A stretch of DNA of 64,000 nucleotides. Source: Schistocephalus solidus. Lineage: Eukaryota; Platyhelminthes; Cestoda; Diphyllobothriidea; Diphyllobothriidae. This document shows positions 3,912-60,720 of this stretch, piece by piece. Within the stretch, counting starts at the first letter, position 1; the number at the start of each line of letters is the position of its first letter. Both the position numbers and the translations under genes were made by a program. A model generated the notes under the pieces. The model saw only the letters and a program-made list of their open reading frames with translations, had not been told where the DNA came from and searched no databases. The DNA lies in assembly GCA_017591395.1 (NCBI GenBank), contig WEDG01000289.1:124001-188000 (forward strand), written 5' to 3'.

Positions 3912-5669
3912 TCATCGCTCAGGCTCTTTGCGGAACATAAAACTGTCAAGGTTCCTTTTAAAGCTTTCCAGCGATGGTGACATCACAACGTCTTCAGGGA
4001 GGGCATTCCATGGTTTAACCACTCTGACAGAGAAGGAGAACTTGTGCACATCCAGTCTCGCCTGCTGGACACGCAGTTTCAATGGGTGACCTCGGAGATG
4101 GGTCGTGGTGGCAAATTCAAAGAAGTCCGAGAATTCCAGGCAACAATCCAATCCCTTCACAATGCGGAATGTCTGCAGGAGATCACCACGCATTTGCCTA
4201 TAACTCAAAGGGAACAGATTAAGATTCATTAGGCGGGTTGGATATGGCAAGGAGCTTTGACTTCTAACCATTTTGGTGGCTTTCCTCTGGACTCTTTCGA
4301 GGCAGTTCTGATCTTGAACTGTCCAGGGTTTCCAGGCGTGCATAGCATATTCCAAATGCGGCCTAATGAATGTTCCAAAGATCTTAGCAAAAAGATCTTC
4401 ATCGAAATCCAAAAAGGCTCGTCTGATGGCATGCAACACCGAAATTGCCCTCTTCGCCACTTTCGAGCAGTGAGACGATGGTTTTAAGGTGGTGGTCATC
4501 AGCACACCAAGGTCCTTTTCTGTTTCCACGTCTTTTAAGGCTTCACCGTTGAGAAAGTAACTTCTACTTTCGGCAGATCCAGACGGGTTGCCTAAGCGAA
4601 GTTTTGTACACTTATCGACGTTGAACCGCAAAAGCCAACGATTCGACCACTCCTCCAACCGAGTTAGGTTGATCTGCAGTTTATCTTCGTCAGCAGGGCT
4701 CTGGATTACATTCCAGATTTTAATGTCGTCGGCAAACATCGCTGCTTCACAGTCGAGATTCCTGACACAATCGTTTACGTATATTAAAAACAGTATTGGC
4801 CCTAGTACTGAGCCATGAGGAACCCCACTCTCGACCGCAGCAGAACTTGACCTCTCTTGGCCGATGCACACAACCTGGCGCCAACCCACGAGGAAGTTTT
4901 TTGATCCACTTGAGGAGGTTACCTCTGATTCCAATTCTTTCTAGCTTGTACAGCAGTCTCTCGTGCGGCACAGTATCGAAGGCCTTTTGAAAGTCAATGA
5001 AGGCAATGTGAACCGCGTGTCTATCTTCAAGTGCTTGGGTCCACCTCTGGAGCGAATACAGCAAATTCGTTGTGCATGATCTTCCTTTTTCTGAACCCGT
5101 GTTGACAGCTTGATAACAAATTATGAGTCTCTAGGAATTTCACCAATTCGCTCTTGATGATCCTTTTCCATAATCTTGCCAAGGATGCATGTTAGCTTAT
5201 GGCCTGTATTTTGTCACTGACGCCCGGCTATCGCTTTTGTACAAGGGAGTTATATGTGCCAGCTTCCAATCGAAAGGAAGTGTTCCGGAGTCAAAGGACT
5301 TTTAAAGAGCACTGACAAAGGTGCGGAAAGTTCATTGGCGAGTTCTTTCAGAAGCTTGGGCGGAAGCTCGTCTGGTCCTGGGGATTTCGACTCTTTTAGT
5401 TCTTTTAATTCCTTTTGGATCAGAAATTCTGAGAATAGTATGTGGCTAATGCTTGCAGTCGGCGGGTTATCCACTGAGGGACGAAGAAACCTTGCCTCAT
5501 TAGTGAAGACTGAGCGGTAGAACTGTGAAAAGTACTCGGCTTTTTTTCTATTTTCAGAAATTTCGACGCCCACGGCAGTCTTAATCAGCGGTATTTGATG
5601 TTTATTCCTTGTACATCTACGGAGGTAACTGTAGACTAACTTTGGATTCTGCGTTGCCTTTTGCAGCAA
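3912..5669 (-). pseudogene. Reverse transcriptase domain of copy A, frameshifted
   Basis: Pieces in different frames together cover a full RT: an SPGPDELPPKLLKEL block near 5390, IAFIDFQKAFDTVPHERLL near 4990, GVPHGSVLGPILFLIYVND near 4800, FADD at about 4726-4737, then KDLGVL and RPHLEYAMHAWKPW in the C-terminal thumb. The last frame of 340 codons ends at 3912 and is uninterrupted. Frameshifts near 5250 and 4940 separate it from the upstream blocks, so no single translation covers the enzyme. All palm residues needed for catalysis are still readable. Confidence 0.82.
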
Positions 5670-5799
5670 AGTCTTCTCAAATTCTCTTCGCGTTTGTAAG
5701 AATAAGGCTTCTCATTTTGTTTCTCTGCGCTTTATACTTATTAAAAATAGGCGACTTGATTAGACTCGCAATATTTTCTCCACAACTTGTGCTTCCTGT

Positions 5800-6761
5800 T
5801 TATTTCCCTTTTAAGTTGCTGTCTAGCCACCCAGGACGCTTGCTGTGATGGACACTCGTTAGCGGGCAGTGGTTGTCAATAAGTTGCAGAAGAACATTTC
5901 GGAAGGACTCCCAATCTTTGTTCACGGTGCTCGAAAACATTGAGGTCCAGTTGATGTGTGTTAAATCTGCTCGCATCTGATGAAAGTTTCCTCGCCAAAC
6001 GTTACGCCGTTTTTCCTCTATAGCAGGCGCAACGGAGAATAATGAGTAATCCCACATAAGCACCACATGATCACTACGACCGAGCGGAGGCATTGAAATA
6101 ATCTCGTCAATGCTGCCTGATGTTTTCGTGAAAACCAGGTCAAGACAGTTAGCCCTTTGTCCTTCACGTGTTCTGGTGGGGAAAGGGACATGTTGTTTGA
6201 GGAGTGCCTTCAAGGTCTTTTGCAGAAAAACATAATCAAAAGTCGATTTCGGGCATGATGATTGAACAGTGCTCCAGTTAATTCCTGGTGCGTTGAAGTC
6301 ACCCATAATCATGACATTAGGTTGACTGGAGAAATTTTCTAATTGTTCCAACAAGTGGGTGTCCGCGACTCGGTCTATCCTAGGTGGCCGATAGACAATG
6401 AGGACATCTAGACATGGAGAGCCAAGAGCCTTGATGTTCAACCATATGGCTTCAGTGCTGCACGCAAACTTGCTCGTCTTGTCAGACACTATTAGCACGT
6501 CTTTCACATACACAATTATTCCACCACCCTGTCGGTTTTTCTGTCCCTCCGATATATTTGGTACCCAGAAAATGTTATTTCGCTATCTAGAATACTGCCC
6601 GACAGCCAGGTTTCGGTTACTGCTATCACATCGGGAGATACTTCGGCAAGGCAAATTTTTAACTCATCAAGTTTTGATAAAGGCTTTGCGCATTTGTATA
6701 CAAGCACTTCAATTTTGCGCCGACCAAATTTCCTGTTGCGTTTGTCAATTTTATGGGCCAA
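5800..6761 (-). pseudogene. Apurinic-like endonuclease domain of copy A
   Basis: The frame carries the APE-type endonuclease signatures in order: a YTNAQSL-like start near 6690, VIAVTETWLSGS (the ET catalytic/metal block), GGGIIVYVKD, VLIVYRPP, MGDFNAPGINW (the GDFN block), and GRSDHVVL (the SDH block) close to the end. These are the domains that nick target DNA to prime reverse transcription. The frame is split by a frameshift near 6515. The C-terminal part runs into the linker ahead of the RT domain near 5800. Confidence 0.8.
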
Positions 6762-7350
6762 ACTGTGACTCCTCTAACGTCAAGGTCGTATGTGTTTTCC
6801 GTTTCTTGATGATTTTCGGTGACTCTGGTTTCTTTAGTGAGAACGCTGGGCGTTACGGAATCAGTTCTGACATCTCTTTGGGCAATGGGTTCCCTGATGG
6901 TTTTGGCGTTAGTGAGGTGGCTGCCGTTGTCCCTCAGAACAATCGGTTGGTTCAATGGAAAAATTCGTATTCTTTTGAACTACCTTCCCCTTGAAAAAAA
7001 GCCAGATTGTGTTCGCCAGCCTTCAGTCTTGATTGTAGTTCCAAGACAAGTTCCTGGCGTTTCAGCCTTTCCGCAGGGGAGTAGTCCGGTTGAAAAACCT
7101 CTTTATGCGAGTGACGGAGGTTAGTTTTTTTGGATAGGATCGCCTTGATTTGGTCTTTGCTCTCTAGCATTATTTTCAGCGGTCGCGGTCGCGGCGTTCC
7201 TAGGCTGTCTTCAGGCTTTTTGCCGATCCGGAATGCTTTAATAACTTTTACTTCCACGCCCGGTGGGAGCAACTGGTTTAGGAGGCCATTAAACGAAGCA
7301 AGGTCTTCGGTGACACGGTCTTCTGGTCGGACTGCAGTTGACTCGTGCAA
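6659..7350 (-). pseudogene. Second ORF1-like segment (RNA-binding-like) after the shared TAA
   Basis: Beginning four codons past the ORF1 stop and in the same frame, this segment reads PPGVEVKVIKAFRIGKK, then RPRPLKIMLESKDQIKAIL, then a DYSPAERLKRQELVLELQSR block. This pattern resembles the RRM-like and C-terminal domains found in ORF1 proteins of jockey/CR1-type elements, in which a short beta-strand-rich part is followed by a basic helix. A frameshift near 6955 breaks it from the following endonuclease. In copy B the same segment joins the endonuclease in one frame apart from a TAG, so it may be the N-terminus of ORF2 rather than the end of ORF1. Confidence 0.6.
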
Positions 7351-7362
7351 ACCCTGAATAAC

Positions 7363-8076
7363 TTAACACTGTTGTCGATCCTGGTACTTGGAATATTCGC
7401 TTCCTCCTGAGTTCTCCTTAGGGGCACGAGAACGGTTTACAGAGCTCTCGTTGGGATTTAGTCTACCTCTGACCATACTCTCATCTGAAGGCTTCAATGA
7501 ATCCATCAGAGTTGATTGTGATTTTGTCCTCCTGTTGTGGTGTTTCCCCATTGCAGCTTGCCACGCGTTTGTTTCTTCGGATTCAACTACGGGCTCTTTA
7601 TAACACCCAAGATAGCAGGATGAGATTTGTGGTTTGCTCTGGTCGTCGTCCGTAGGATTCAGAGACTGTGCTCCTGTTATCCGTTCGTTATGGGTAATCG
7701 CGTCCGAACATTGTGAGCTGTAATCAGTTGTAGTTTTTGATACTTTTCGTGCTTTAGTCACTGCCTTTTTAACTGGAATATTGCTAAGCGTATTTCGTCG
7801 AGTAATGTTATCTTGCAAGAGCTTCCTTAAGTCTGCAAGCTCATTTTCCAGTTTTTGAACTCTTAGTAAAATATAAGAACATCCAACGCAAGATTCGTCC
7901 TCGTAGCCAACGGATTTGGCTGCCATTACGCTTTTTGCGCGCTTTGCTGGTTTTTGGTTACAAGTATAAACTGATGAAGTGCCAGTCGTGGATGTCGAAG
8001 CCAGCTCAACAGGCTTTCCTTTAAAGGAAGTTCCGTGACGGGTTCTGTTGCTAGCAAACAATTGTTTTGAGTCCAT
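7363..8076 (-). CDS. ORF1 of jockey-like element (intact, 237 aa)
   Basis: This frame of 237 codons starts at the first ATG after the 5' UTR. It is basic and rich in Ser, Thr and Lys. It contains a CVGC motif at about residue 74, followed at once by a short leucine/acid-rich stretch (LENELADLRKLL) that looks like a coiled coil. There is a second basic segment toward the end. ORF1 proteins of non-LTR elements bind the element RNA and assemble into particles; here that role is inferred from position and from the coiled coil, not from a recognised domain. The frame ends at a TAA that is present at the same place in copy B, and an ORF1-like segment continues in the same frame after it. Confidence 0.75.
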   Translation of the reverse strand: MDSKQLFASNRTRHGTSFKGKPVELASTSTTGTSSVYTCNQKPAKRAKSVMAAKSVGYEDESCVGCSYILLRVQKLENELADLRKLLQDNITRRNTLSNIPVKKAVTKARKVSKTTTDYSSQCSDAITHNERITGAQSLNPTDDDQSKPQISSCYLGCYKEPVVESEETNAWQAAMGKHHNRRTKSQSTLMDSLKPSDESMVRGRLNPNESSVNRSRAPKENSGGSEYSKYQDRQQC

Positions 8077-8235
8077 AAATGTTAAAACACTGCGAAAAAG
8101 TATGTTCTCCTTTGAGCTTATAACGAAAATTTCCGACTGGCTTTGGAGTATGGCGAGTATTTAATGCAATATGAGCAAAAATGTTTATACTTGTTCAAAA
8201 ACGCTTTTGAAAAATACTATAAACGGTATGAAGGA

Positions 8236-11448: not shown

Positions 11449-11607
11449 TCCTTCATACCGTTTATAGTATTTTTCAAAAGCGTTTTTGAACAAGTATAAA
11501 CATTTTTGCTCATATTGCATTAAATACTCGCCATACTCCAAAGCCAGTCGGAAATTTTCGTTATACGCTCAAAGGAGAACATACTTTTTCGCAGTGTTTT
11601 AACATTT

Positions 11608-12321
11608 ATGGACTCAAAACAATTTTTTGCTAGCAACAGAACCAGTCACGGAACTTCCTTTAAAGAAAAGCCTGTTGAGCTGGCTTCGACATCCACGACT
11701 GGCACTCAATCAGTTTATACTTACAACCACAAACCAGCAAAGCACACAAAAAGCGTAACGGCAGCCAAATCCGTTGGCTACGAGGACGAATCTTGCGTTG
11801 GATGTTCTTATATTTTACTAATAGTTCAAAAACTGGAAAATGAGCTTGCAGACTTAAGGAAGCTCTTGCAAGATAACATTACTCGACGAAATACGCTTAG
11901 CAATATTCCAGTTAAAAAGGCAGTGACTTAAGCACCAAAAGAATCAAAAAATACAACTGATTACAGCTCACAATGTTCGGACGCGATTACCCAAAACGAC
12001 CGGATAACGGGAACACAGTCTCTGAATCCTACGGACGATGACCAGAGCAAACCACAAATCTCATCCTGCTATCTTGGGTGTTCTAAAGAGCCCGTAGTTG
12101 AACCCAAAGAAACAAACGCGTGGCAAGCTGCAATGGGGAAACACCACAACAGGAGGACAAAATCACAATCAACTCTGATGGATTCATTGAAGCCTTCAGA
12201 TGAGAGTATGGTCAGAGGTAGACTAAATCCCAACGAGAGCTCTGTAAACCGTTCTCGTGCCCCTAAGGAGAACTTAGAAGGAAGCGAAAATTCCAAGCAC
12301 CAGGATCGGCAACAGTGTTAA
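11608..12321 (+). pseudogene. ORF1 of copy B with one nonsense codon
   Basis: It is collinear with the intact ORF1 at 7363-8076 over its whole length. A premature TAA at 11929-11931 interrupts it after 107 codons, and the same frame continues to the TAA at 12319-12321. The CVGC motif and the LENELADLRKLL coiled-coil stretch are conserved. Otherwise only scattered substitutions separate the copies. Confidence 0.78.
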
Positions 12322-12333
12322 GTTATTCAGGGT

Positions 12334-12975
12334 TTGCACGAGTCAACGTCAGTCCAACCAGAAGACCGTGTCGCCGAAGACCTTGCTTCGTTTAATGGCC
12401 TCCTAAACCAGTTGCTCCCACCGGGCGTGGAAGTAAAAGTTATTAAAGCATTCCGGATCAGCAAAAAGTCTGAAGACAGCCTAGGAACGCCGCGACCGCG
12501 ACCTCTTAAAATAATGCTAAAGAGCAAAGACCAAATCAAGGCGATCCTATCCAAAAAAACTAACCTCCGTCACTCGCATAAAGAGGTTTTTTCAACCGGA
12601 CTACTCCCCTGCGGAAAGGCTGAAACGCCAGGAACTTGTCTTGGAACTACAATCAAGACTGAAGGCTGGCGAACACAATCTGGCTATTTTCAAGGGGAAG
12701 GTCGTTCAAAAGAATACGAATTTTCCATTGAACCAACCGATTGTTCTGAGGACAACGGCAGCCACCTCACTAACGCCAAAACCATCAGGGAACCAATTGC
12801 CCAAAGAGATGTCAGAACTGATTCCGTAACACCCAGCGTTCTCACTAAAGAAACCAGAGTCACCGAAACTCATCAAGAAACGGAAAAGACATATGACCTT
12901 GACGTTAGAGGAGTCACAGTTTGGCCCATAAAATTGACGAACGCAACAGGAAATTTGGTCGGCGCGAAATTGTAG
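12334..12975 (+). pseudogene. ORF1-like second segment of copy B
   Basis: It starts four codons after the shared TAA, in the same frame. The first half matches copy A (PPGVEVKVIKAFRISKK, RPRPLKIMLKSKDQIKAIL). A single-base slip near 12590 shifts the frame, and a second change near 12700 restores it, so the middle is read out of frame. It ends at a TAG (12973-12975) where copy A has a lysine codon, immediately before the endonuclease. Confidence 0.65.
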
Positions 12976-12978
12976 TGC

Positions 12979-13924
12979 TTGTATACAAATGCACAAAGCC
13001 TTTTATCAAAACTTTATGAATTAAAAATTTGCCTTGCCGAAGTATCTCCGGATGTGATAGCAGTAACCGAAACCTGGCTGTCGGGCAGTATTCGAGATAG
13101 CGAAATAACATTTTCTGGGTACCAAATATATCGGAGGGACAGAGAAAACCGACAGGGTGGTGGAATAATTGTGTATGTGAAAGACGTGCTAATAGTGTCT
13201 GACAAGACGAGCAAGTTTGCGTGCAGCACTGAAGCCATATGGTTGAACATCAAGGCTCTTGGCTCTCCATGTCTAGATGTCCTCATTGTCTATCGGCCAC
13301 CTAGGATAGACCGAGTCGCGGACACCCACTTGTTGGAACAATTAGAAAATTTCTCCAGTCAACCTAATGTCATGATTATGGGTGACTTCAACGCACCAGG
13401 AATTAACTGGAGCACTGTTCAATCATCATGCCCAAAATCGACTTTGATTATGTTTTTCTGCAAAAGACCTTGAAGGCACTCCTCAAACAACATGTCCCTT
13501 TCCCCACCAGAACACGTGAAGGACAAAGGGCTAACTGTCTTGACCTGGTTTTCACGAAAACATCAGGCAGCATTGACGAGATTATTTCAATGCCTCCGCT
13601 CGGTCGTAGTGATCATGTGGTGCTTATGTGGGACTACTCATTATTCTCCGTTGCGCCTGCTATAGAGGAAAAACGGCGTAACGTTTGGCGAGAAAACTTT
13701 CATCAGATGCGAGCAGATTTAACAGACATCAACTGAACCTCAATGTTTTCGAGCACCGTGAACAAAGATTTGGAGTCCTTCCGAAATGTTCTTCTGCACC
13801 TTATGGACAACCACTGCCCGCTAACGAGTGCCCATCACAGCAAGCGTCCTGGGTGGCTAGACAGCAACTTAAAAAGGGAAATAAACAGGAAGCACAAGTT
13901 GTGGAGAAAATATTGCGAGTCTAA
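12979..13924 (+). pseudogene. Endonuclease domain of copy B
   Basis: The first frame (to 13473) runs from YTNAQSL through VIAVTETWLSGS, GGGIIVYVKD, VLIVYRPP and MGDFNAPGINW. A frameshift near 13440 moves the remainder, including GRSDHVVLMW, into another frame that ends with a stop at about 13735. The catalytic residues match those of copy A. It would need two repairs to be read through, so it is non-functional as it stands. Confidence 0.78.
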
Positions 13925-13929
13925 TCAAG

Positions 13930-15738
13930 TCGCCTATTTTAATAAGTATAAAACACAGAGAAACAAAATGAGAAGCCTTATTCTTACAACGCGAAGAGAA
14001 TTTGAGAAGACTTTGCTGCAAAAGGCAACGCAGAATCCAAAGTTAGTCTACAGTTACCTCCGTAGATGTACAAGGAATAAACATCAAATACTGCCGTGGG
14101 CGTCGAAATTTCTGAAAATAGAAAAAAAGCCGAGTACTTTTCACAGTTCTACCGCTCAGTCTTCACTAATGAGGCAAGGTTTCTTCGTCCCTCAGTGGAT
14201 AACCCGCCGACTGCAAGCATTAGCCACATACTATTCTCAGAATTTCTGATCCAAAAGGAATTAAAAGAACTAAAAGAGTCGAAATCCCCAGGACCAGACG
14301 AGCTTCCACCCAAGCTTCTGAAAGAACTCGCCAATGAACTTTCCGCACCTCTGTCAGTGCTCTTTCAAAAGTCCTTTGACTCCGGAACACTTCCTTTCAA
14401 TTGGAAGCTGGCACATATAACTCCCTTGTACAAAAGCGGTAGCCGGGCGTCAGTGACAAACTACAGGCCCACAAGCTTGACATGCATCCTTGGCAAGATT
14501 ATGGAAAGGATCATCAAGAGAGAATTGGTGAAATTCCTAGAGACTCATAATTTGTGATCAAGCTGTCAACATGGGTTCAGAAAAGGAAGATCATGCACAA
14601 CGAATTTGCTGTATTCGCTCCAGAGGTGGATCCAAGCACTTGAAGATAAACACGCGGTTCAAATTGCCTTCATTGACTTTCAAAAGGCCTTCGATACTGT
14701 GCCGCACGAGAGACTGCTGTACAAGCTAGAAAGAATTGGAATCAGAGGTAACCTCCTCAAATGGATTGAAAACTTCCTCATGGGTCGGCGCCAAGAGAGG
14801 TCAATTCTGCTGCGGTCGAGAGTGGGGTTCCTCATGGCTCAGTACTAGGGCCAATACTGTTTTTAATTTACGTAAACGATTGTGTCAGGAATCTCGACTG
14901 TGAAGCAGCAATGTTTGCCGATGACATTAAAATCTGGAATGTAATCAAGAGCCCTGCTGACGAAGATAAACTGCGGATCAACCTAACTCGGTTGGAGGAG
15001 TGGTTGAATCATTGGCTTTTGCTGTTTAACGTCGATAAGTGTACAATACTTCGCTAAGGCAACCCATCTGGATCTGCCGAAAGTAGAAGTTACTTTCGCA
15101 GCGGTGAAGCCTTAAAAGACGTGGAAACCCAAAAGGACCTTGGTGTGCTGACGACCATCACCCTAAAACCATCGTCTCACTGCTTGAAAGTGGCGAAGAG
15201 CGCAATTTCGGTGTTGCATGCCATCAGACGAGCCTTTTTGGATTTCGATGAAGATCTTTTCGCGAAGACTTTTGGAACATTCATTAGGCCGCATTTGGAA
15301 TATGCTATGCACGCCTGGAAACCCTGGACAGTTCAAGATCAGAACTGCCTCGAAAGAGTCCAGAGGAAAGCCACCAAAATGGTTAGAAGTCAAAGCTCCT
15401 TGCCATATCCAACCCGCCTAATGAATCTTAATCTGTTCCCTTTGAGTTATAGGCAAATGCGTGGTGATCTCCTGCAGACATTCCGCATTGTGAAGGGATT
15501 GGATTGTTGCCTGGAATTCTCGGATTTCTTTGAATTTGCCACCACGACCCATCTCCGAGGTCACCCATTGAAACTGCGTGTCCAGCAGGCGAGACTGGAT
15601 GTGCGCAAGTTCTCCTTCTCTGTCAGAGTGGTTAAACCATGGAATGCCCTCCCTGAAGACGTTGTGATGTCACCATCGCTGGAAAGCTTTAAAAGGAACC
15701 TTGACAGTTTTATGTTCCGCAACGAGCCTGAGCGATGA
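13930..15738 (+). pseudogene. Reverse transcriptase of copy B
   Basis: Blocks in several frames cover the RT: KSPGPDELPPKLLKEL near 14290, WKLAHITPLYKSG near 14405, IAFIDFQKAFDTVPHERLL near 14670, and FADD at 14914-14925. The C-terminal domain follows in one frame (15121-15738), with KDLGVL, RPHLEYAMHAWKPW and a terminal WNALPEDVVMSP block. Stops occur near 14555, 14848 and 15057. The palm motif is intact but the enzyme cannot be made from one frame. Confidence 0.8.
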
Positions 15739-15918: not shown

Positions 15919-16804
15919 CACAATTTCTGTACGAACTCACCGACCAGCTGGCCTCTCCGCTCTCCAAGATCTTTGAAAGTTCGATGGAGGCGGGGGCTCT
16001 GCCTACCGAGTGGAAGCTAGTCAACATAACCTCCATCTATAAAGGAGGAGAGTGGACATCACCAAATAGTTTAAAGCCAGTCAGCCTTAAAATATATGTT
16101 GCAAAATGATATAGATGATCGAAACCGAACTGATGAGGTATATTAAAGAGAATAACTTGCTAAGTTCACATCAACATGGATTTAGTTGTGGTCAATCCTG
16201 CCTCAAAAACCTGCTCAAATCCATGGAAAGCTGGAAGAAATAATTCGAAATTGGTTTGTCAGTCGATGCGGTCTACAAAGCTTTTGTTAGGGGACCACAA
16301 AGAAAACTGATATCGAAGCTGCGTCAAATGGGTGTGACTGGCAACCAACTCAACTGCCTGGCCGAATTTCTCACAGGCAGGCGCCAACGTGTTTGTATTG
16401 GAGACACCAAGTCACACTGGGGAACCGTTTACAGTGGACTTCCACAGGGGAGCATGCCCGGTATGATTCTGTTTCTGATAAACGTGAACGACTGCCTTGA
16501 TTGTCTGACATGCGAAAAGGTCATGTTTGCTGGATCAGAAGTTATAGAATTCGATTGAACAACCGGAGGATGAGCGAAACTTACAAAATAACTTAGATCG
16601 CTTGCAAACATGGTGTGATGCGTGGCTGCTGAACCTTAATTTCAACAAATGCCAAATCATCTGACTATAGTCTAGTTACATATGGGTGATGAGGTTTGAA
16701 TATCAGTACTTCATCAGCGGTCACCAACTCGATGAGGTAAGTGTTCTAAAGGTGTTAGGTATGTGGATAACACCCAAACTCAAATAATCGTAATATGCTA
16801 CAGG
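15919..16804 (+). mobile_element. Second jockey-like RT relic
   Basis: Directly after copy B, a diverged RT reads: LASPLSKIFESSMEAGALP, then GFSCGQSCLKNLL, a VDAVYKAFVRGP block in place of the usual FxDFxKAFDxVxH, VYSGLPQGSMPGMILFLINVND, and VMFAGSEV where the FADD should be. The aspartates of the catalytic motif are lost (FAGS). The C-terminal blocks after 16560 are in other frames. It is an old, dead copy, possibly the insertion target of copy B. Confidence 0.65.
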
Positions 16805-16996
16805 TCGCTATCCTACCGAGTGTGAGGGATCTTTAGTGAGCTCCAGGGCACAGCGGAACATACATGTCCCTTAAGCAGATCGGTGAGCCGCACATTATCA
16901 TCATAATCCCGATCGCAACTGATAAAACAACGAGAGGGTGGCTCAATGGTTGATTGTTCGACTCCAGTACCAAAGGTCACGCTTTCGAATTCCAGA
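16805..16996 (+). repeat. Hammerhead-bearing short repeat: end of one unit and tRNA-like head of the next
   Basis: AGTGAGCTCC near 16835 is followed about 100 bases later by a tRNA-like head. It has a pol III A-box match TGGCTCAATGG (16939-16949) and a B-box-like CTTTCGAATTC (16982-16992). The order and spacing match the dimer at 42575-43000, where the same AGTGAGCTCC block precedes the same A box. A CR1-like element (16997-18371) then interrupts it, and the repeat resumes at 18372. Confidence 0.62.
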
Positions 16997-18371: not shown

Positions 18372-18550
18372 TCGGGATTGGGTATGACTGGCTGATGACG
18401 GCTAATAAGCCAGAAATGGTCATTACTGTCTCCCTTGTCTTTGTCGACTCCACCTTATCTACAATATATATCACCCGCACTCCCCTCGTCCACCACGGGC
18501 TTGGTCTACTGGCAAGGCTGAAACACCACCCTCCTCAACAAGCAGCATGA
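18372..18550 (+). repeat. Hammerhead-bearing short repeat, continuation after CR1-like insertion
   Basis: The repeat resumes with TTCGGGATTGGGTATG and the hammerhead-like core at 18386-18430, then a CTCCCTTGTCTTTGTCGAC block that also occurs in the copies at 42.6 kb and in the palindrome arms. The 3' portion is less well conserved. Confidence 0.62.
18386..18430 (+). ncRNA. Hammerhead-ribozyme-like motif, copy 1
   Basis: The order is stem I strand GACTGG (18386-18391), core CTGATGA (18392-18398), stem II GGC/GCC with loop TAATAA, core GAAA (18413-18416), a very short stem III (AT facing AT around GGTC), the presumed cleavage triplet ATT ending at 18424, then ACTGTC as the other stem I strand. 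Stem I has two mismatches and the base pair next to the core in stem II is C against A, so activity is doubtful in this copy. The layout is that of a type I hammerhead with minimal stem III, as known from schistosome Sm-alpha repeats and Penelope-like elements. Confidence 0.6.
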
Positions 18551-18723: not shown

Positions 18724-18950
18724 TGGTTTCCGTTATCGCCTCTTCTTCTCATATATATGGCAAGCGTATGGACTAAGTGTGCCGTTCTTGAGCGCATATT
18801 TTCGCGTCCTGTCCTAGCTGGTATTCAGGATTATGATTGACGGTATGAAGGTAGAATAAGCCCGAAATAGACAGTATAAATCCACCCGCATTTGCGGTCG
18901 TCTCTCCTGTCTGCAATTAGAACTTGGCCATTCCGATCTCCCTTGTCATT

Positions 18951-19023
<73 letters not shown>

Positions 19024-19267
19024 ATAAAAGTGGAACCGACAAAGACAAGGGATATCGGAATGGCCAAGTTCTAATTGCAGACAGGAGAGATGACCGCAAA
19101 TGCGGGTTGATTTATACTGTCTATTTCGGGCTTATTCTACCTTCGTACCGTCAATTAAAATCCTGAATACCAGCTGGGACAGGACGCGAAAATATGCGCT
19201 TAAGTACGGCACACTTAGTCCATACGCTGGCCATATATATGAGAAGAAGAGGCGATAACGGAAACCA
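18724..19267. repeat. Palindrome with 224-bp arms around a TA microsatellite
   Basis: The arms at 18724-18947 and 19044-19267 are reverse complements with about 10 mismatches by eye. They are separated by 96 bases that are mostly TA dinucleotides. The inner part of each arm carries a GGCCATTCCGAT/CCCTTGTC block also found just after the hammerhead motif of the short repeat. The arms therefore look like two copies of a related repeat joined tail to tail through their TA-rich ends. A long hairpin could form in RNA or as a cruciform. Confidence 0.85.
18950..19021. repeat. (TA)n microsatellite
   Basis: There is an almost uninterrupted TA dinucleotide run of about 70 bases at the centre of the palindrome. 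Open frames through it (repeats of Ile-Tyr) are not genes. Confidence 0.95.
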
Positions 19268-41600: not shown

Positions 41601-42574
41601 TGCTGGCAGTGTGGGGATTGGTAGTACCATAAAGGCACGTCATCTGGCTCATCATTAAATCTTTCACTTAAAATCCGTAGAGGTCTTTTATTTGATATCT
41701 TTTTGAAATGCCTGAACCTTCGAATTTTTGTTTGTGGAAAATTCATATGCCCAACTTAAAATATCTAACCGTTACTGTGGCCGATCGTGACCTGCGACAA
41801 CGCATATGCACTTGTTTAACTCGTAAATGACTTATAGGAGGTTACTGCATCCTCTATCACCTACTAGTAACATGCCTTTCACTTGCAATTGTTCCGATGA
41901 ATCTGTTCTTGCTTTCGGTTGCCGGTAAATTCAAAATTGGGAAAGTGAAATTTTAGATCTACATGATAAATTTCTTCTCGGTACTTGACATGAAGTCTCA
42001 TGAAAAATATTGAAGTGTTTTTTGAAGTGGTCCAATCGCAACCGACAACTTAGGCCTTGCTTATTTCTCTGCCAATGTTATTCCCCCATGGATTGGGGGT
42101 TAAAATTCAGATAAAATTTCTCCATTTATAAATTATTGTCGCCGGCAGCACGTTTTGATTTCATTGTCTCCTTTGAAAGTACCCGGTTGACATTTTAACA
42201 GTTCCCCTGATTAATTTTTTCTTGCACAAAAAGAAACTATGCATATCCAATTGCTTTGCCTATCCTTTGAACCAGATGGGCAGATGATCAGGCCAGAGTG
42301 ACAGGGCATTTTCCTTCTCGCTGAAAAGTGCACGTATGAGTTGTGTTCTTAGTCAAAAAGAAATATGGGAGGATTTTCTAAAGCCTTGATATTTCATTTC
42401 TGATTACCTAACGTTTGCAGCAGGACATCGAACTAATGACCGTTTTTGTCACCCAAAACGCAGGTGATACCTTGATCATACTTGTGTAACAACGACAATA
42501 AGCTCTGAGGGGTTGGTAAGACGATTACTAACCTCTTACGTTTGTGCAATCCAGTAATGGCAAATGAAGACCTT
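38695..42574. other. 3.9 kb downstream of WDR20 without recognised gene
   Basis: AT-rich sequence with short open frames (for example 39207-39488, 40605-40952, 41510-41746) that show no domain. The first few hundred bases may be WDR20 3' UTR. I found no sequence shared with the element families of the window. Confidence 0.5.
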
Positions 42575-42605
42575 GGGAGGGGGGGCAGCACCTGGGGTTG
42601 GGTAT

Positions 42606-42650
42606 GGCTGGCTGACGACGGCTAATAAGCCGGAAACGGCCATCCCAGTC
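42606..42650 (+). ncRNA. Hammerhead-ribozyme-like motif, copy 2 (best core)
   Basis: Stem I GGCTGG (42606-42611) faces CCAGTC (42645-42650), with one G-T pair. The core is CTGACGA (42612-42618); position 7 of the hammerhead core tolerates any base, so C here is acceptable. Stem II CGGC/GCCG is perfectly paired around TAATAA (42619-42632). GAAA is at 42633-42636. Stem III is minimal (one A-T pair certain), and the presumed cleavage triplet is ATC (42642-42644). All invariant core bases are present. The tiny stem III might require dimers, as known for minimal hammerheads. Confidence 0.68.
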
Positions 42651-42826
42651 TCCCTAGTCTTTATCAGCAAAATTCGTCTGCCTATTCTACTACTAGATGC
42701 TGTGCAGCTGCTGGCGGGGTTAGAGAGTGAGCTCCAAAGCGGAATGGGACGAGTGAGTTCCGTTAACGATCACTGAGCGTTCACGAACGAATGTCAATAT
42801 TCCCGGTCTAAACCGGCAAGAAAATG

Positions 42827-42900
42827 AGCCCGTGGCTCAATGGTTAGAGCATTGGGCTTATGATCAACAGGCTGAAAGTTCGAGCCTCAGGTGGAGCACC
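42827..42900 (+). promoter_or_regulatory. tRNA-like pol III promoter head of the short repeat
   Basis: The A-box match is TGGCTCAATGG (42833-42843) and the B-box-like sequence AGTTCGAGCCT (42877-42887), 33 bases apart as in tRNA genes. A D-arm-like GCTC/GAGC stem is visible. No complementary acceptor strand exists at the 3' side, so this is a tRNA-derived SINE-type promoter and not a tRNA gene. Confidence 0.62.
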
Positions 42901-42916
42901 GCCTGTGTTTTGGTAT

Positions 42917-42961
42917 GACTGGTTGATGACGACCATTGAGCCAGAAATGGCCATTCAATTC
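42917..42961 (+). ncRNA. Hammerhead-ribozyme-like motif, copy 3 (decayed)
   Basis: GACTGG at 42917-42922, then TTGATGA where CTGATGA is expected (first core C lost), GAAA at 42944-42947, and stem III ATGGCCAT. Stem II and stem I are degraded. Loss of the invariant C makes cleavage unlikely; it is evidence for the family, not an active site. Confidence 0.5.
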
Positions 42962-43000
42962 ACCCTTGTTCTTGCCGGCGTTGTTCAAATGCCTGGTATC

Positions 43001-43374
43001 TTTCCTTTGAATGTTTTGGCAAATAATTTTGTTCGGCTAGGACGTCATATAAACGAATCCGTGACCTCACGCACATGATAACAACTGAATTTAAGGAAAA
43101 TAATTAGCATAATGTGCCTTTAAGTCATACGACCATGTACTTGAATGAATGGATGCCGTCAAATTAAAATAAGTCAGTTGAATTTTACAGTAGTTTTGAT
43201 ATTAGTAGACTACCAAATTATAAAAAAACGAAATACAAGCAGAAACCTTTCATATTTGATTACATGAACCACCCAAGTGCCCTAGAAACCATGGCCTTCG
43301 AGAGCTCCCTTGAAGGACGAACATAGTTATATAGCATCATTTGGCATAAACTTTACGGGCAAATATCTACCGTG
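43001..43374. other. Unclassified interval
   Basis: AT-rich interval between the short repeat and the truncated retroelement, without a recognised feature. Confidence 0.4.
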
Positions 43375-44730
43375 GCGTTCACCGATCTATGCAGTCCCAC
43401 CGGAAGTCTACAAGCACGGTGGGCCCCGGCTGATGGCAGAACTCACAACACTCTTCCAGGAGATGTGGCGCCAAGGACAAGTTCCTCAGAATTTCAAAGA
43501 CGCGACCATCATCCATCTCTTCAAACGAAGGGTAACCAGCAACTCTGTGATAATCACAGAGGCATCTCGTTGCTCAACATCGCCAAGAAGATCTTTGCCC
43601 GTATCATTCTTAATCGTTTGAACGGTCACCTAAAGCAGGGCCTGCTCCCGGAAAGCCAATTTGGCTTCCGCCGACACTGCGGAACAACCGACAGGACCTT
43701 TGCCGTCACCAGCTTCAAGTGCCAGGAGATGGAAACTCACCTATACACTACCTTCGTGGATCAGACGAAAGCCTTTGACACGGTGAAATACGACGGACTG
43801 TGGAAAGTCATGGAAATTCGGCTGTCCTGAGCGGTTCACGCGCATGGTGCGTCAGCTTCATGAGGGAATGACGGCGCGCGTCACTGCCAACGGGACGGTA
43901 TCCGAAGCATTCGCAGTGACCAATGGAGTGAAGCAGGGCTGCGCATTGGCTCCCACTCTGTTCAGTCTCATGTTCTCGACTATGCTGATGTATGCCTACC
44001 GTGATGAAGAGTCTGTCACCCGTCAGCTGTCACCCAGCGTGGAATACAATGCTCCCTGAATCAATTTCAACGGTACTCAACTCACAAATGTGGAAACCTT
44101 CGCTTATCTAGGAAGCACGCTGTCACGCAACAGGAGAATCGATGATGAGGTTGCCCAACGGATCTCCAAAACCGGTCACGCCTATGGCCGGCTGCAGGTC
44201 TTCGTGTGGAATCGCCACGGTATTCACCTGAACACCAATTTGAAGATGTACAAGGCCGTCGTCTTGACGACACTCCTTTACGGAGCGAAGACCTGGACCG
44301 TCTACTCGAACCAAACCAGGAAGCTGAATCACTTCCATCTCAGCTGCCTCCGCAGAATACTGAAGCTGAGATGGCAAGACAGGATCCCGGACACGGAAGT
44401 CCTGGAGCGGACCGGAATCCTCAACATCCACGCCATGCTGAGGCAAGCGCAACTGCGATGGAGCGGCCACCTGGTAAGAATGGACGATGAGTGACTACCC
44501 AAACGACTTTTCTACGGCGATGTCGCTACGGGTTCTCGCCGACAGGGAGGTCAAAAACGACGCTACACGGACACTGAAGAAATCGCTGAAGCAATTGCAA
44601 ATCAACCCAGCGACCTTGGAGGACCTCGCCAGGATAAACCGGCATGGAAAAGATCCGTGAAGACTGGTTTAGCAATCTATGAGGCCAACCGGATCGCCGC
44701 CGCCAAGGCCAAAATAGCGGCACGGAAGTA
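43375..44730 (+). pseudogene. RT and RT C-terminal tail of the zinc-finger-tailed element
   Basis: The RT part contains NHRGISLLNIAKKIFARII near 43555, GLLPESQFGFRRHCGTTDR near 43645, FVDQTKAFDTV near 43760 and TNGVKQGCALAPTLFSLMF near 43925. The FADD block is deleted. The C-terminal part contains FAYLGSTLS near 44100, [11 protein letters not shown] near 44275, [19 protein letters not shown] near 44340 and [11 protein letters not shown] near 44465, then a Lys/Arg-rich tail ending in EANRIAAAKAKIAARK near 44725. Stops lie at 44059 and 44494 and a frameshift near 43825. Confidence 0.8.
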
Positions 44731-44735
44731 ACCAA

Positions 44736-45570
44736 TTGCCCCGGACCAACACCGTCGATGCCCAGGCCCTTCCAACATGCTCGCGCTGTCAGCGCATCTT
44801 CCGCGCGCGAATCGGCCTGGTTGAACATCTTCAGATGCAATGCATCAACAAATCCGACAATTCGAACTGCTACGTCAAATTCTGCCAACCTTACTTCAGA
44901 GTCTCCACCCTCACTCCTGGCATAAATTCCATTACTCCCACCATCATAGAGACCACCTCCCAATACTCATTGCCTGTTACTTCCAGTACCGCAACCACCA
45001 CCGCAATTAGTTATGGGGACTCTCTCCTAAACTGTCATCAACGCGACCGCACATTCACCTCACGCATCGGCCTGGCCGGTCACTTGCGAATCCATCGTAC
45101 AGAGACTAGTGAACCAGCGCCTGGAGAACCAACAAACAGCAGAGATCGCCGCCTCCACTGCCCTCACTGTCCTCGCGCATTCACTCATCGCATGGGCCTA
45201 TTCGGTCACATGCACATCCAGGATAGTGTTATTCATCTCAATGCCGACAACACCGATACATCATGCACACCCTCCGCTCCTGCCATTCTTACCGCCACTG
45301 CCATCCCCACTACCATGAATGACATCCGCCCAGCCACTACCGATTTCTCCTGCCCACACTGCGCCCGCAACTTTGACTCACACATCGGCCTGGTCGGTCA
45401 CCTGCGAATCCATCGCACGGAGGCTGTGAACCAGTGCCTGGGGCTCCGACATACAGTCGCCGCGCCCGCCTCCACTATTCTCACTGCTCCCGCAAATTTA
45501 CACACCTAATGGGCCTATTAGGACACATTCGCCTCCGCGACATACTGCGGTAAAACAGCGTATGCTAAAC
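44736..45570 (+). pseudogene. C2H2 zinc-finger array following the RT tail
   Basis: The frame 44736-45509 encodes five finger-like units: CSRCQRIFRARIGLVEHLQ with a distal Cys (near residue 12), then a unit with the second Cys lost (CHQRDRTFTSRIGLAGHLRIH), [21 protein letters not shown] (last His lost), [21 protein letters not shown], and a fifth after a frameshift. Fingers 2 to 5 are joined by RTETGE-type linkers. C2H2 fingers bind nucleic acid; here they may bind the element's own RNA or the target DNA (inference). The array follows the RT tail closely, so it is a C-terminal extension of the polyprotein and not a host transcription factor. Confidence 0.78.
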
Positions 45571-46492: not shown

Positions 46493-46870
46493 TTATAGGC
46501 CCGTGTGGTGTGTAAATGAGCGGGAGCAGTGCAGGTGGGTGCGGCGACTGTATGTCGGGGTCCCAGGCACTGGTTCACCAGCCTCCGTGCGATGGATTCG
46601 CAGGTGACCGATCAGGCTGATGCGTGAGTTGAAGTTTTGGGCGCAGTATGGGCAGGAGAAATCGAGAGGGCTGGGAGGGTTGTCATTCGTGTTAGCGGGG
46701 GTGGCAGTGGTGGTGAGATTTGCAGTAGCGGCGGGTGTGCATGGTGTTGTCGACTTTGCGATGAATTCCGCTGTCATGGATGCGCATGTGACCGCACAGG
46801 CCCATGCGGTGAGGGAATGCGCAAGGATAGTAGATGTGCTGATCACGCTGTGATGTGGCGCTCCAGGCAC
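46493..46870 (-). pseudogene. Zinc-finger region of the RT-deleted copy
   Basis: The minus frame of 125 codons reads a Thr/Pro-rich linker, then CPYCAQNFNSRISLIGHLRIH (a complete C2H2 finger) and RTEAGEPVPGTPTYSRR leading into a broken finger (HCSRSFTHHTGL). It resembles the fourth and fifth fingers at 45350-45540. Confidence 0.7.
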
Positions 46871-47304
46871 AGTTTCACCAGTTTCTGTGCGATGGATTCC
46901 GGAAGGAATCCTTATTCCAGGTGGCCGTTAAGGCAATTGAAGGGAATTCGGGTGAAGATGTTACTGACAATGTTGAGCAGCGAGATTCCTGGATGCTGAT
47001 CGCAGCGTTGGCGGTTCCCCATCTTTTGGTAGAGGTGCACGATTATGGCGTCCTTAAAATATCTTGGAAGCTCTCCTTGGCACCACCTCGCCTGGAAGAG
47101 CTCTAAGAGCTTGTTCATCAGTTGGGAGCCGCCATGCTTGTAAATCGCAGCAGGGATCGCGTCTGATATACATATGCTTTCGCACTGGAGAGTTGCTGGA
47201 TGGCCCTGATGGTTTCTTGGAGAGAGAGCAGGAGATTGAGGTCGGCGCTGGTTTCCACCTCAGGAAGTCGGTCGATGGTGGCGTCCAGGATGATGCAGGG
47301 CCGG

Positions 47305-50299: not shown

Positions 50300-51035
50300 C
50301 AGCCGTCGGTGTTCTACCGCAGGTTTTCATGGAGACTCATGCGACCTAGTAGGTCCATGCGGTGTGTGAATGTGCGTGGGCAGTGCGGACAGATGAGTTG
50401 AGTGCGGTGGGTGTATGTTGGAGTTAATAGAACTGGTTCTCCAGTCTCTCTGCGATGGATTCGAAAGTGACCGACAAGGCAAATGCGTGATGTGCATGGC
50501 GGTGACAATAAGGACAAACTATATATGGAGGTGGTGAGTCTGCACGGGATCTGCTGCTGGTACTGGTAGTCGAGCTCATGGGAGGAAGATGGGAAGTGTT
50601 GATAGGTGCGCAAGATGTGTTGGCGTTGTACTGGATTCAGCTTTCGTGGATGCGCATGTGACCGATCAGGCCCATGTGGTGGGCGAATGTGTGGGGGGCA
50701 GTGAGGGCATAGGAGGCGGCGGTCTCTGCTGTGTGATGGTGCTGCAGGCACTAGTTCGCCAGTCTCTGTGCGATGTATTTGCAAATGACCGACCAAGCTG
50801 ATGTGCGAGTTGAATGTGCGATCGCAATGAGGACAGGTTATTACCGAGTACCCATCGCTAATACTGGGGTCGGTGGTGGTGGTTTTGGAGGTAGTAGGTG
50901 GCAGGTAATCGGAGGTGGCGGGGGTGGGACTAGTAGTGCTCGTCATCGTGATGGCTGCAGGTGTATGTGAAGGGAGGATGGTGTCGGTTATCGTGTGCGG
51001 TGGGGCATTGACAGAGTTATCCTCAGTAATTGGTA
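50300..51035 (-). pseudogene. Zinc-finger region, 3' part, split by LTR insertion
   Basis: The minus-strand frame (51090-50314) reads a Thr/Pro-rich linker, [21 protein letters not shown], then [12 protein letters not shown], a broken second finger, CTSRICLVGHFRIH, and [21 protein letters not shown] (last unit with one His lost). The upstream half of the same region continues at 54175-54790 beyond the LTR element. Confidence 0.75.
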
Positions 51036-51264
51036 CAGTGTACGTGACACGCATGGTCCGGACATGACACACCTGCGCGCGACAAGGCAACTTTCAAGGT
51101 CATGTATGCACGGCCAGCTCACCATTGTTCTGACTGACCGCCCTTCAGCCTACGACATTCCCGCTTTGCCATATACCCTGCTGAGTCCCCTTTGACTCCC
51201 CACTTGTGTTGGTTACCGTCCTCAGTACACGTCTTGTTCACAAACAGCCTTCTGTGTTGGATAC
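51036..51264 (+). repeat. 5' LTR
   Basis: The shared part with the 3' LTR starts CAGTGTACGTGAC and ends GTTGGATAC. The canonical TG start may be at 51039. The two LTRs differ at many positions, indicating age. Confidence 0.85.
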
Positions 51265-59150: not shown

Positions 59151-60720
59151 GCTTCGAATCCATGATTTCAAGGTTGTGGAAGCGCATGTGGACTAATAGG
59201 CCTATGCGATGAGTAAATGCACGAGAACAGTGAGGGCAGTGGAGGCGGCGATCTCTGATTTGTTGTGTTCCAGGCACTGGTTAACCAGTCTATGTACGAT
59301 GGATCCGCAAGTGACTGACCACGCCAATGTTTGAGGTGAATGTGTGGTCACATCAAGGGAGTCCCCATCGCTGGTGGTGGTGGTGGTGGTGGTGAAGGTA
59401 ACAGATGATGAGTATTGGGATGATGTGTCCTAATAGGCCCATGTGATGTGTAATGGTGCGGGAGCAGTGAGGGCCTTGGATTCGGGCGCGTCGACTGTAG
59501 GTCGGAGCCCCGGACACTGGTTCACCAGCCTCCGTGCGATGGATTCGCAGGTGACCGACACGGCGGATGCCTGAGTTGAAGTTGCGGGCGCAGTGTGGGC
59601 AAAAGAAATCGGGATAGGCTGGGGGGACGTCATTCGTCGTAGTGGGGGTGGCAGTGGCGGTAAGAATGGCAGGGGCGGAGGGTGTGCATGGGATATAGGC
59701 GTTGTCAGAATTGCGGCGAATAACGCTGTCATGGATGCGCATGTGACTGAATAGGCCCATGCGATGAGTAAATGCGCGAGGGCAGTGGAGGCGGCGATCT
59801 CTGTTGTATGTTGGTGCTCCAGGCACCGGTTCACCAGTCTCTGTACGATGGATTCGCAAGTTACCAACCAGGCCGATGCGTGAGGTGAATGTGCGTTCGC
59901 AATAAGGACAGCTTAGGATAGAGTCCCCATCTCTGATGGTGTTGGTGGCGGCGACGGTTTTGGGCGAAACAGGTGAGGAGTATTGGGATTTGATCTTTAT
60001 GATGGTGGAAGTAATGAAAATGATGCCAGGGATGAGTGGGGAGTCCGAAGGAGGGTTGGCAGAATTTGACGTAGAAGTTGGAATTGGCGGATTGTTGGTG
60101 CATTGCGTCCGAAGATGTGCGACCAGGCCGATTCGCGGACGGAAGGTCCGTTGACAGCGTGGGCGTATGAGAATGGCCTGGGCATTTACGGTGTTTGTTC
60201 GGGGCGATGGTGAATTTCATGCCGCTCTTTAGGTCTTGGCGGCGGCGATCATGTTGGCTTCGTAGATTGCTGCCCCTGTCTTCACTGTCCTTCTTCAAGC
60301 CGGTCTTTTCCGGGCGATGTCCTCCCAGGTCACCGGGTTGATCTGCAGTTGCTTCAGGGAAGTCTTCAGACTGCCCTTGTAGCGTCGTACTTGACCTCCT
60401 TGTCAACGAGAACCCATGGCGACATCTCCATAGAAGAGTCCTTTGGGTAGTCGTTCCTCGTCCACCCTCACAAGTTGGCCGCTCCTTCGCAGTTGCAGTT
60501 GTTTCAGCTGAGCATAAATGCTGAGAAGGCCTTTTCGTTCAAACACTTCTGTGTCCGGTATCCTGTCTTGTTATTTCAGCTTGAGTATTCTGCAAAGGCA
60601 GCTGAGGTGGAAGTGGTTGAACGTCCGCGCCTGCTTTTCTTAGATCGTCCACGTCTCCGCTCCATCCAGCAGCGTCAGCAATATGACAGCTTTGTGTAGC
60701 TGCATCGTCCGACAATTCTG
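59026..60720 (-). pseudogene. RT tail and zinc-finger region of the next unit
   Basis: Minus-strand reading: RT C-terminal tail at 60720-60240 (CLCRILKLK and LSIYAQLKQLQLRRSGQL blocks, frameshifted), then fingers down to 59150: a first unit RCQRTFRPRIGLVAHLRTQC with one Cys lost, CPYCERTFTSRIGLVG, a unit with two bases lost ([20 protein letters not shown]), CPHCARNFNSGIRRVGHLRIH, and CPHCSRAFTHRIGLLVHMRFH at about 59220. It runs straight into R1. Frames are broken several times. Confidence 0.7.

What the first reader, a model, noticed from the sequence alone, without database searches (positions are those of the whole stretch)
42606..42961. Tandem tRNA-like repeat carrying hammerhead-ribozyme cores, unit 311 bp
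Two same-strand motifs with the hammerhead order (stem I, CTGANGA, stem II, GAAA, minimal stem III, NUH, stem I) are 311 bp apart, with pol III A and B boxes between them. The first (42606-42650) has every invariant core base, a perfect CGGC/GCCG stem II and a paired stem I. This matches the plan of schistosome Sm-alpha repeats and of tandem hammerhead-bearing retroposons, but in what looks like a tapeworm. RNA from such an array could self-cleave into 0.3-kb monomers.
Basis: partly seen in the sequence, partly recalled or inferred. Interest (0 to 1): 0.85.

Follow-up and report, generated by a model that had tools for sequence, protein, structure and literature searches.

The report
Tapeworm mobile repeat with hammerhead motifs
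A tapeworm genome carries worn-out copies of a short tRNA-headed jumping repeat whose units hold a hammerhead-ribozyme-like motif, much like repeats long known from blood flukes; it is probably a new family of a known kind, and self-cutting has not been shown.

Summary
Copy 1 (42606-42650) has a full hammerhead core, a perfect stem II and a paired stem I. It is the only hit of a strict descriptor in the window, with none in 200 shuffles. Rfam's type I hammerhead model aligns exactly there, but at 13.6 bits against a threshold of 34. Copy 2, 311 bp downstream, is broken (C3 to U, stems I and II disrupted). Only the hammerhead segment repeats, not the whole unit. A third copy lies at 18379-18438.

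Read as protein, the segment occurs in 12 predicted proteins, all named as tapeworm: Schistocephalus, Spirometra, Sparganum and (weakly) Dibothriocephalus. In one Schistocephalus protein a tRNA-like head sits between two hammerhead segments 303 nt apart, against 311 here. So this is a tRNA-headed SINE or retrozyme-like family.

Against present activity: no double-sided stem change, a competing hairpin that pairs better, and predicted folds that are not the hammerhead for any of 3 copies, as monomer or dimer. Cleavage in intact copies, perhaps as dimers, is inferred.

The parts
42599..42658 (+). Hammerhead-like segment, copy 1 (core region 42606-42650; CTGACGA 42612-42618, stem II 42619-42622/42629-42632, GAAA 42633-42636, AUC 42642-42644; predicted cut 42644|42645)
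   Evidence: RF00163 aligns 42606-42650 at 13.6 bits, gathering score 34
42659..42824 (+). Unit body between hammerhead copy 1 and the tRNA-like head
   Evidence: Its translated frame resembles D. latus P0017 (shuffles as good: 1 of 1000) and S. solidus P0016 (2 of 1000), but not the other 8 of 10 proteins tested; DNA resembles 16791-16961 (E 3.4e-6, query 143-316)
42826..42897 (+). tRNA-like head (ends approximate) with pol III A box (42833-42843) and B box (42878-42886)
   Evidence: RF00005 18.3 bits at 42833-42889, below gathering score 29; boxes; ARAGORN (bacterial setting) reports no tRNA in the window
42908..42911 (+). TTTT run between the B box and hammerhead copy 2, a possible pol III stop
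   Evidence: run found by script; role inferred
42910..42969 (+). Hammerhead-like segment, copy 2, broken (TTGATGA at 42923-42929; AUU 42953-42955)
   Evidence: 45 of 60 bases identical to copy 1; 10 of 15 hammerhead pairs; no RF00163 match at E up to 10
18379..18438 (+). Hammerhead-like segment, copy 3, with a related 3' tail to about 18471
   Evidence: nhmmer E 2.6e-12; 51 of 60 bases identical to copy 1; 12 of 15 pairs; no RF00163 match at E up to 10
16791..16996 (+). Diverged body and tRNA-like head, probably of the same element as copy 3; about 1.37 kb of other sequence lies between
   Evidence: E 3.4e-6, 16791-16961; 49-nt shared stretch, 0 of 500 shuffles; translated tRNA frame matches the S. 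solidus type at 16931-16996, E 2.7e-4; no tRNA covariance match

Best explanation
The locus is an old, decayed insertion of a non-autonomous, tRNA-headed retroposon (SINE, retrozyme-like) of diphyllobothriidean tapeworms. Shown: the unit order is hammerhead segment, body, tRNA-like head, hammerhead segment, with a period of 303-311 nt, and it recurs in at least one other species. Inferred: RNA polymerase III starts at the tRNA-like head. In a transcript spanning two hammerhead segments, each cuts after its AUH triplet and frees a unit-length RNA (here 42645-42955, 311 nt). Two units may have to pair through the self-complementary stem III, because the 2-bp stem is weak alone. The monomer or its circle is then copied by a reverse transcriptase from another element. 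The copies in this window have probably lost the activity.
For: Strict hammerhead descriptor: 1 hit in the window, 0 in 200 shuffles. RF00163 picks exactly the same register. Homologues in 12 predicted proteins, all named as tapeworm. In 18 copies (15 database, 3 window; one chance match in P0017 dropped), codons fit A6-N-G8, A9 and G12-A13-A/G14 in 18 of 18, A15.1 in 17 and the AUH triplet in 16. Unit geometry: hammerhead to tRNA 204 nt in S. solidus P0008, 204 in D. latus P0017 (there only the A-box side, RARGSMV, is seen) and 210 here; tRNA to next hammerhead 99 nt in P0008 and 101 here. Stem III plus loop is an exact 8-nt palindrome in copy 2, pairs with itself using G.U in copy 3, and at 6 of 8 positions in copy 1 (sequences).
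Against: No Rfam match at threshold for any of 3 copies. No double-sided stem change; the inner stem II pair forms in 1 of 3 copies. A GCCR-GAAA-YGGC hairpin that excludes the hammerhead pairs in 12 of 12 cells with one double change, though 145 of 500 shuffles do as well. The lowest-energy fold is not the hammerhead in any copy (copy 1 -25.0 against -12.3 kcal/mol), and in the three real copies the gap is wider still for homodimers (copy 1 -53.4 against -38.7). Core columns are not significantly more conserved (10 of 11 against 32 of 49, p 0.09). The survey by protein similarity favours copies that keep the frame; one search also required K before PE in database rows, and 5 of the 18 rows begin at the protein's start M. 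TTTT may stop pol III before copy 2.
Confidence: 0.5

Rival explanations
1. An ordinary tRNA-derived SINE whose conserved central domain merely resembles a hammerhead. It never cleaves, or ceased to long ago; the conserved fold is the GAAA-capped hairpin or no fold at all. The double copy came from template switching.
For: The rival hairpin pairs in 12 of 12 cells against 36 of 45 for the hammerhead; predicted folds favour other structures, as monomers and dimers; no Rfam-level match.
Against: The full set of core bases plus two stems is not met in 200 shuffles; the RF00163 register is exact; the majority of the three window copies forms 14 of 15 hammerhead pairs; AUH is kept in 16 of 18 copies. 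The hairpin's double change lies at sites where CpG decay could give the same pattern without selection (own inference).
Confidence: 0.33
2. The hammerhead segment was captured from the pseudo-LTR of a Penelope-like element, whose minimal hammerheads occur in tandem and may work as dimers, and Penelope enzymes mobilise the SINE. This can be true together with the best explanation.
For: Penelope elements make up about 10% of the Sparganum proliferum and Spirometra erinaceieuropaei assemblies (PMC8166898, passages). Animal Penelope elements carry minimal type I hammerheads in tandem (PMC7761336, passages), and that of one Anolis element cleaved only with its protein (PMC11167929, passages).
Against: No Penelope element was recognised beside these copies, but only 10 ORFs were scanned. 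The related segments found are in SINE-like contexts. The segment keeps an internal loop in stem I, where minimal Penelope hammerheads are said to lack the usual tertiary interactions (PMC6155905, section read).
Confidence: 0.25
3. Chance resemblance of two unrelated stretches to the hammerhead consensus.
For: The bare core pattern is common: 11 matches against 5.97 expected. The descriptor was written after seeing copy 1.
Against: Three related copies in the window and relatives in other tapeworms with the same unit geometry make it a real family, whatever its activity.
Confidence: 0.03

Closest known systems
SM-alpha / Sj-alpha SINE-like retroposons of schistosomes
   Same: tRNA-related SINE-like repeats with a hammerhead; about 2,300 tRNA-Gln-like copies in S. 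mansoni were traced to SM-alpha-like SINEs (PMC2770079, passages); activity of SM-alpha is reported, and 3 of 5 tested related candidates cleaved (PMC8490949, section read).
   Different: The host is a tapeworm, stem II begins with C10.1 rather than the usual G (usual base recalled), stem III is 1-2 bp, and no copy reaches the RF00163 threshold, whereas 16 S. haematobium elements were reported as similar to RF00163 (PMC5993326, passages). Sequence homology was not tested: no schistosome DNA was held.
Animal non-LTR retrozymes (Cervera and de la Pena 2020, PMC7229834)
   Same: Small repeats with type I hammerheads and RNA of about 170-400 nt; platyhelminths are named among hosts (passages). One axolotl motif has a one-pair stem III with a palindromic tetraloop and acts as a dimer, close to the stem III here. 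Palindromic stem III sequences that could pair between two hammerheads are also noted for Aedes and newts (PMC3088659, passages).
   Different: A tRNA-like head is not among the retrozyme features in the passages I read; circular RNA, abundance and cleavage are untested here.
Minimal hammerheads of Penelope-like elements (Cervera and de la Pena 2014; Lunse et al. 2017; neither paper held, known from citing passages)
   Same: Very short stem III, tandem occurrence, proposed dimeric cleavage.
   Different: Described from Penelope pseudo-LTRs; here the setting is a tRNA-headed SINE with an internal loop kept in stem I.
Helenus TRIMs with tRNA-like LTRs (PMC10886601, passages)
   Same: Short non-autonomous elements with a tRNA-like sequence.
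   Different: Helenus has LTRs, a primer-binding site and a polypurine tract; in that paper 'hammerhead' occurs once, in the reference list. I did not look for such sites here.

Membership tests
Type I hammerhead ribozyme (RF00163) | Invariant core CUGANGA...GAAA...UH | tested here: met
   Met by 2 of 3 window copies (1 and 3); copy 2 has U at C3
Type I hammerhead ribozyme (RF00163) | Three helices around the core, stem I open | tested here: inconclusive
   Pairs formed: copy 1 14 of 15, copy 3 12, copy 2 10; stem III only 1-2 bp
Type I hammerhead ribozyme (RF00163) | Covariance-model score at or above the gathering threshold | tested here: not met
   Copy 1 13.6 bits against 34; copies 2 and 3 no match
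Type I hammerhead ribozyme (RF00163) | Compensatory changes in stems I and II | tested here: not met
   0 of 15 pairs with a double change, but only 3 sequences
Type I hammerhead ribozyme (RF00163) | Self-cleavage after NUH | not testable with these tools
   Needs an in vitro assay
tRNA-derived SINE (SM-alpha-like) | tRNA-like head with pol III A and B boxes | tested here: met
   Boxes at 42833 and 42878; RF00005 18.3 bits, below its cut-off of 29, and no ARAGORN tRNA, so tRNA-like only; 5 of 12 database proteins carry a translated tRNA-like head upstream
tRNA-derived SINE (SM-alpha-like) | Dispersed multicopy family with target-site duplications | tested here: inconclusive
   Dispersed copies in the window and in 4 named species; one 8-bp candidate duplication, TGGCAAAT at 42558 and 43017, of a length chance often gives (about 0.3 expected, own estimate); none of 8 bp or more at the second locus
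SM-alpha family proper | Sequence homology to schistosome SM-alpha | not tested
   No schistosome DNA was available in the collections
Animal non-LTR retrozyme | Unit of about 170-400 nt delimited by hammerheads on both sides | tested here: met
   311 nt here (one of the two segments broken), 303 nt in S. solidus P0008
Animal non-LTR retrozyme | Linear and circular unit-length RNA | not testable with these tools
   No RNA reads available

The most novel reading that the evidence does not exclude
Diphyllobothriidean tapeworms carry a pol III-driven retrozyme family: a tRNA-headed SINE that spreads through hammerhead-cut, probably circular, unit-length RNA. In S. solidus protein P0010 three hammerhead frames are joined 66 nt apart, and the second join falls directly after the AUH codon, where cleavage would end the RNA, as if cleaved ends had been rejoined and written back into DNA.
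Probability: 0.2. Interest if true: 0.65.

Novelty: new member of a known kind. Interest (0 to 1): 0.42.

Why it matters
If active, it would extend hammerhead-bearing SINEs from blood flukes to tapeworms and link two classes usually described apart: tRNA-headed SINEs and retrozymes that spread as circular RNA. The stem III design (2 bp and a self-complementary loop) would make it a test case for dimer-dependent cleavage in a worm that can be worked with, S. solidus. If inactive, it documents how a ribozyme domain decays inside a SINE.

Tried and rejected
Bare core counting: a loose pattern is no better than chance, so it was dropped as evidence. A second unit body upstream of copy 1 or downstream of copy 2 was sought and not found. 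Target-site duplications: one 8-mer at the first locus, none at the second. DNA relatives in viral contigs and genome contigs: 0 matches; these collections are viral, bacterial and archaeal, so this says little. The window's own genome was never reached: the genome search was unanswered. More copies in the window: profile and covariance searches gave clear hits only for the same three, from which the models were built; the next best were E 0.06 and E 0.6.

Papers on hammerheads in tapeworms: one search gave 0 papers. One search gave 3, seen as a listing; I looked further only at passages of PMC10886601. One search gave 98, of which 15 were listed, and none of those 15 holds 'hammerhead'. The listings (20 of 382; 12 of 256) showed no tapeworm SINE ribozyme. 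'Ribozyme' occurs 0 times in the main texts of three tapeworm genome or retrotransposon papers (PMC12471100, PMC8166898, PMC4265353). So I found no description of this family in that library, which lacks most subscription papers.

Considered and rejected: a protein-coding role for the frame. The same frame appears inside predicted proteins of S. solidus with different further sequence, 5 of the 12 with tRNA-like translations upstream, which fits SINE sequence swept into gene models.

Full report
What is there. Two related stretches lie 311 bp apart on the + strand: CTGACGA at 42612 and TTGATGA at 42923. The first has a complete hammerhead core, a perfect 4-bp stem II with a six-base loop, and a 6-bp stem I with one G.U. 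Outside stem I there are three further G-C pairs across a UAU/U internal loop (pairs counted). A tRNA-like stretch with good A and B boxes lies between the two; Rfam's tRNA model gives it 18.3 bits, below its cut-off of 29, and ARAGORN in its bacterial setting reports no tRNA. A third copy, not in the finding, lies at 18379-18438. About 1.37 kb before it is a diverged copy of the body and the tRNA-like head, at 16791-16996, without a tRNA covariance match. The sequence between looks reverse-transcriptase-like only to my eye, with no Pfam match for the two ORFs tried. Profile and covariance searches find no further clear copy in the window.

Chance. A loose core pattern gives 11 matches against a shuffled mean of 5.97, with 18 of 100 shuffles at 11 or more, so the core alone proves nothing. 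A strict descriptor with both stems, the A-U pair and NUH gives 1 hit (copy 1) and none in 200 dinucleotide shuffles. It was written after seeing copy 1 and so flatters it. Rfam's RF00163 aligns to exactly 42606-42650 when given 73 bases, at 13.6 bits with a gathering score of 34 and E 0.71; it is not listed when 1 kb is given. It finds nothing in copy 3 or copy 2. The whole window has no Rfam match at gathering level.

What else carries it. The only named match of a WD40 ORF in the window is from Dibothriocephalus latus, 83% identical over 58%, a diphyllobothriidean tapeworm (the order of the other species named here is recalled). No flatworm DNA was in reach, so I used the open reading frame that happens to run through the hammerhead segment. 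A search with the three window frames found 2 Schistocephalus solidus proteins. A second, seeded with those and the window frames, found 12 proteins at E up to 10: 9 from S. solidus (two of them the seeds), 1 from Spirometra erinaceieuropaei, 1 from Sparganum proliferum (E 1.5e-4) and 1 from D. latus (E 0.11, weak). Five of the 12 carry a MVERxTQxPKxAGSNP stretch upstream, which I read as a translated tRNA-like head; in the four of them measured it starts 84 nt before the A6-N7-G8 codon. S. solidus P0008 holds two hammerhead segments 303 nt apart with such a head between. Spacing from segment to tRNA is 204 nt in P0008, 204 in D. latus P0017 (where only the A-box side, RARGSMV, is seen) and 210 here; from tRNA to the next segment it is 99 in P0008 and 101 here. 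The body frame after the segment resembles P0017 and P0016 (1 and 2 of 1000 shuffles as good) but not the other 8 of 10 proteins tested. So the unit plan is a family trait, not an accident of this locus.

Is it a working ribozyme. For: reading codons as bases, of 18 copies (15 database and 3 window; one chance match in P0017 left out), 18 fit A6-N-G8, 18 fit A9, 18 have GAA or GAG, 17 have A15.1, and 16 have the AUH triplet. This set was found by protein similarity, database rows needed K before PE, and 5 rows begin at the protein's start M, so it leans toward conserved frames. Against: in the three DNA copies 36 of 45 hammerhead pair cells form (80%), with no double-sided change. The inner stem II pair forms only in copy 1, and that copy loses the second stem III pair. 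A hairpin GCCR-GAAA-YGGC, which uses the same bases and excludes the hammerhead, forms in 12 of 12 cells with one double change, though 145 of 500 shuffles do as well; that pattern could also come from CpG decay. Core columns are invariant in 10 of 11 cases against 32 of 49 elsewhere, p 0.09.

Folding. Dimers do not rescue the real copies: the gap between the hammerhead and the best fold is 12.7 kcal/mol for copy 1 alone and 14.7 as a homodimer, 12.9 and 19.0 for copy 3, 25.7 and 40.2 for copy 2. Only for the majority of the three copies does it narrow, from 6.9 to 4.6 (monomer -11.3 against -18.2; dimer -43.3 against -47.9). So dimer-dependent action, as described for amphibian retrozymes (PMC7229834, passages), is a possibility for intact copies and not something these copies show. 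Copy 2 has lost C3 and parts of stems I and II, and a TTTT run at 42908-42911 could end pol III transcripts before it.

Most likely mechanism. Pol III starts at the tRNA-like head. Transcripts that span two units are cut after AUH (42644|42645 and 42955|42956 in this locus), which frees a 311-nt RNA. A ligase may circularise it, and another element's reverse transcriptase copies it. The anatomy is shown; every step of this pathway is inferred from the anatomy and from known retrozymes and SM-alpha. For this locus I expect no efficient cleavage today.

Relation to what is known. It works, if at all, like SM-alpha of schistosomes (PMC2770079 and PMC8490949) and like animal retrozymes, for which platyhelminths are already named as hosts (PMC7229834). 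I do not file it as an Rfam hammerhead, since the threshold test failed. I file it as a new tapeworm family of the known kind 'SINE-like retroposon with a hammerhead-like domain'. Penelope elements, about 10% of the Sparganum and Spirometra assemblies (PMC8166898), are a possible source of the segment or of the enzyme.

Limits. The window's genome could not be searched: 13 tries of the genome search did not complete (listed under tried and rejected). With three DNA copies, covariation cannot be judged fairly.

Noticed in passing
window 18724-19267: A near-perfect palindrome, two arms of 272 nt, 92% complementary, around a TA run. Near its centre one arm carries a 40-nt match to the 3' end of hammerhead copy 3 and its tail (0 of 1000 shuffles as good; the matches with copies 1 and 2 are weaker, 1 and 10 of 1000). 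Rfam miRNA models hit it below their cut-offs.
   Followed up: partly
S. solidus protein P0010: Three hammerhead frames follow each other at 66-nt spacing. The second is joined to the next unit directly after the codon for AUH, the predicted cleavage point; the first has lysine (AAR) at that codon. Seen at protein level only.
   Followed up: partly
window 43327-43830: A reverse transcriptase fragment (PF00078, E 4.2e-11) about 360 bp downstream of hammerhead copy 2 on the same strand, a possible source of copying enzyme.
   Followed up: no
window 3912-8160 and 11524-15738: Two oppositely oriented sets of open frames with nearly the same translations, which look like two copies of one LINE (by eye); a reverse transcriptase domain was tested and found only in 3915-4940.
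   Followed up: no
window 44718-45509 (+), 46493-46927 (-), 50314-51093 (-), 59353-60216 (-): Open frames with repeated C2H2-zinc-finger-like spacing, apparently part of a repeated element (by eye only; no family search run).
   Followed up: no
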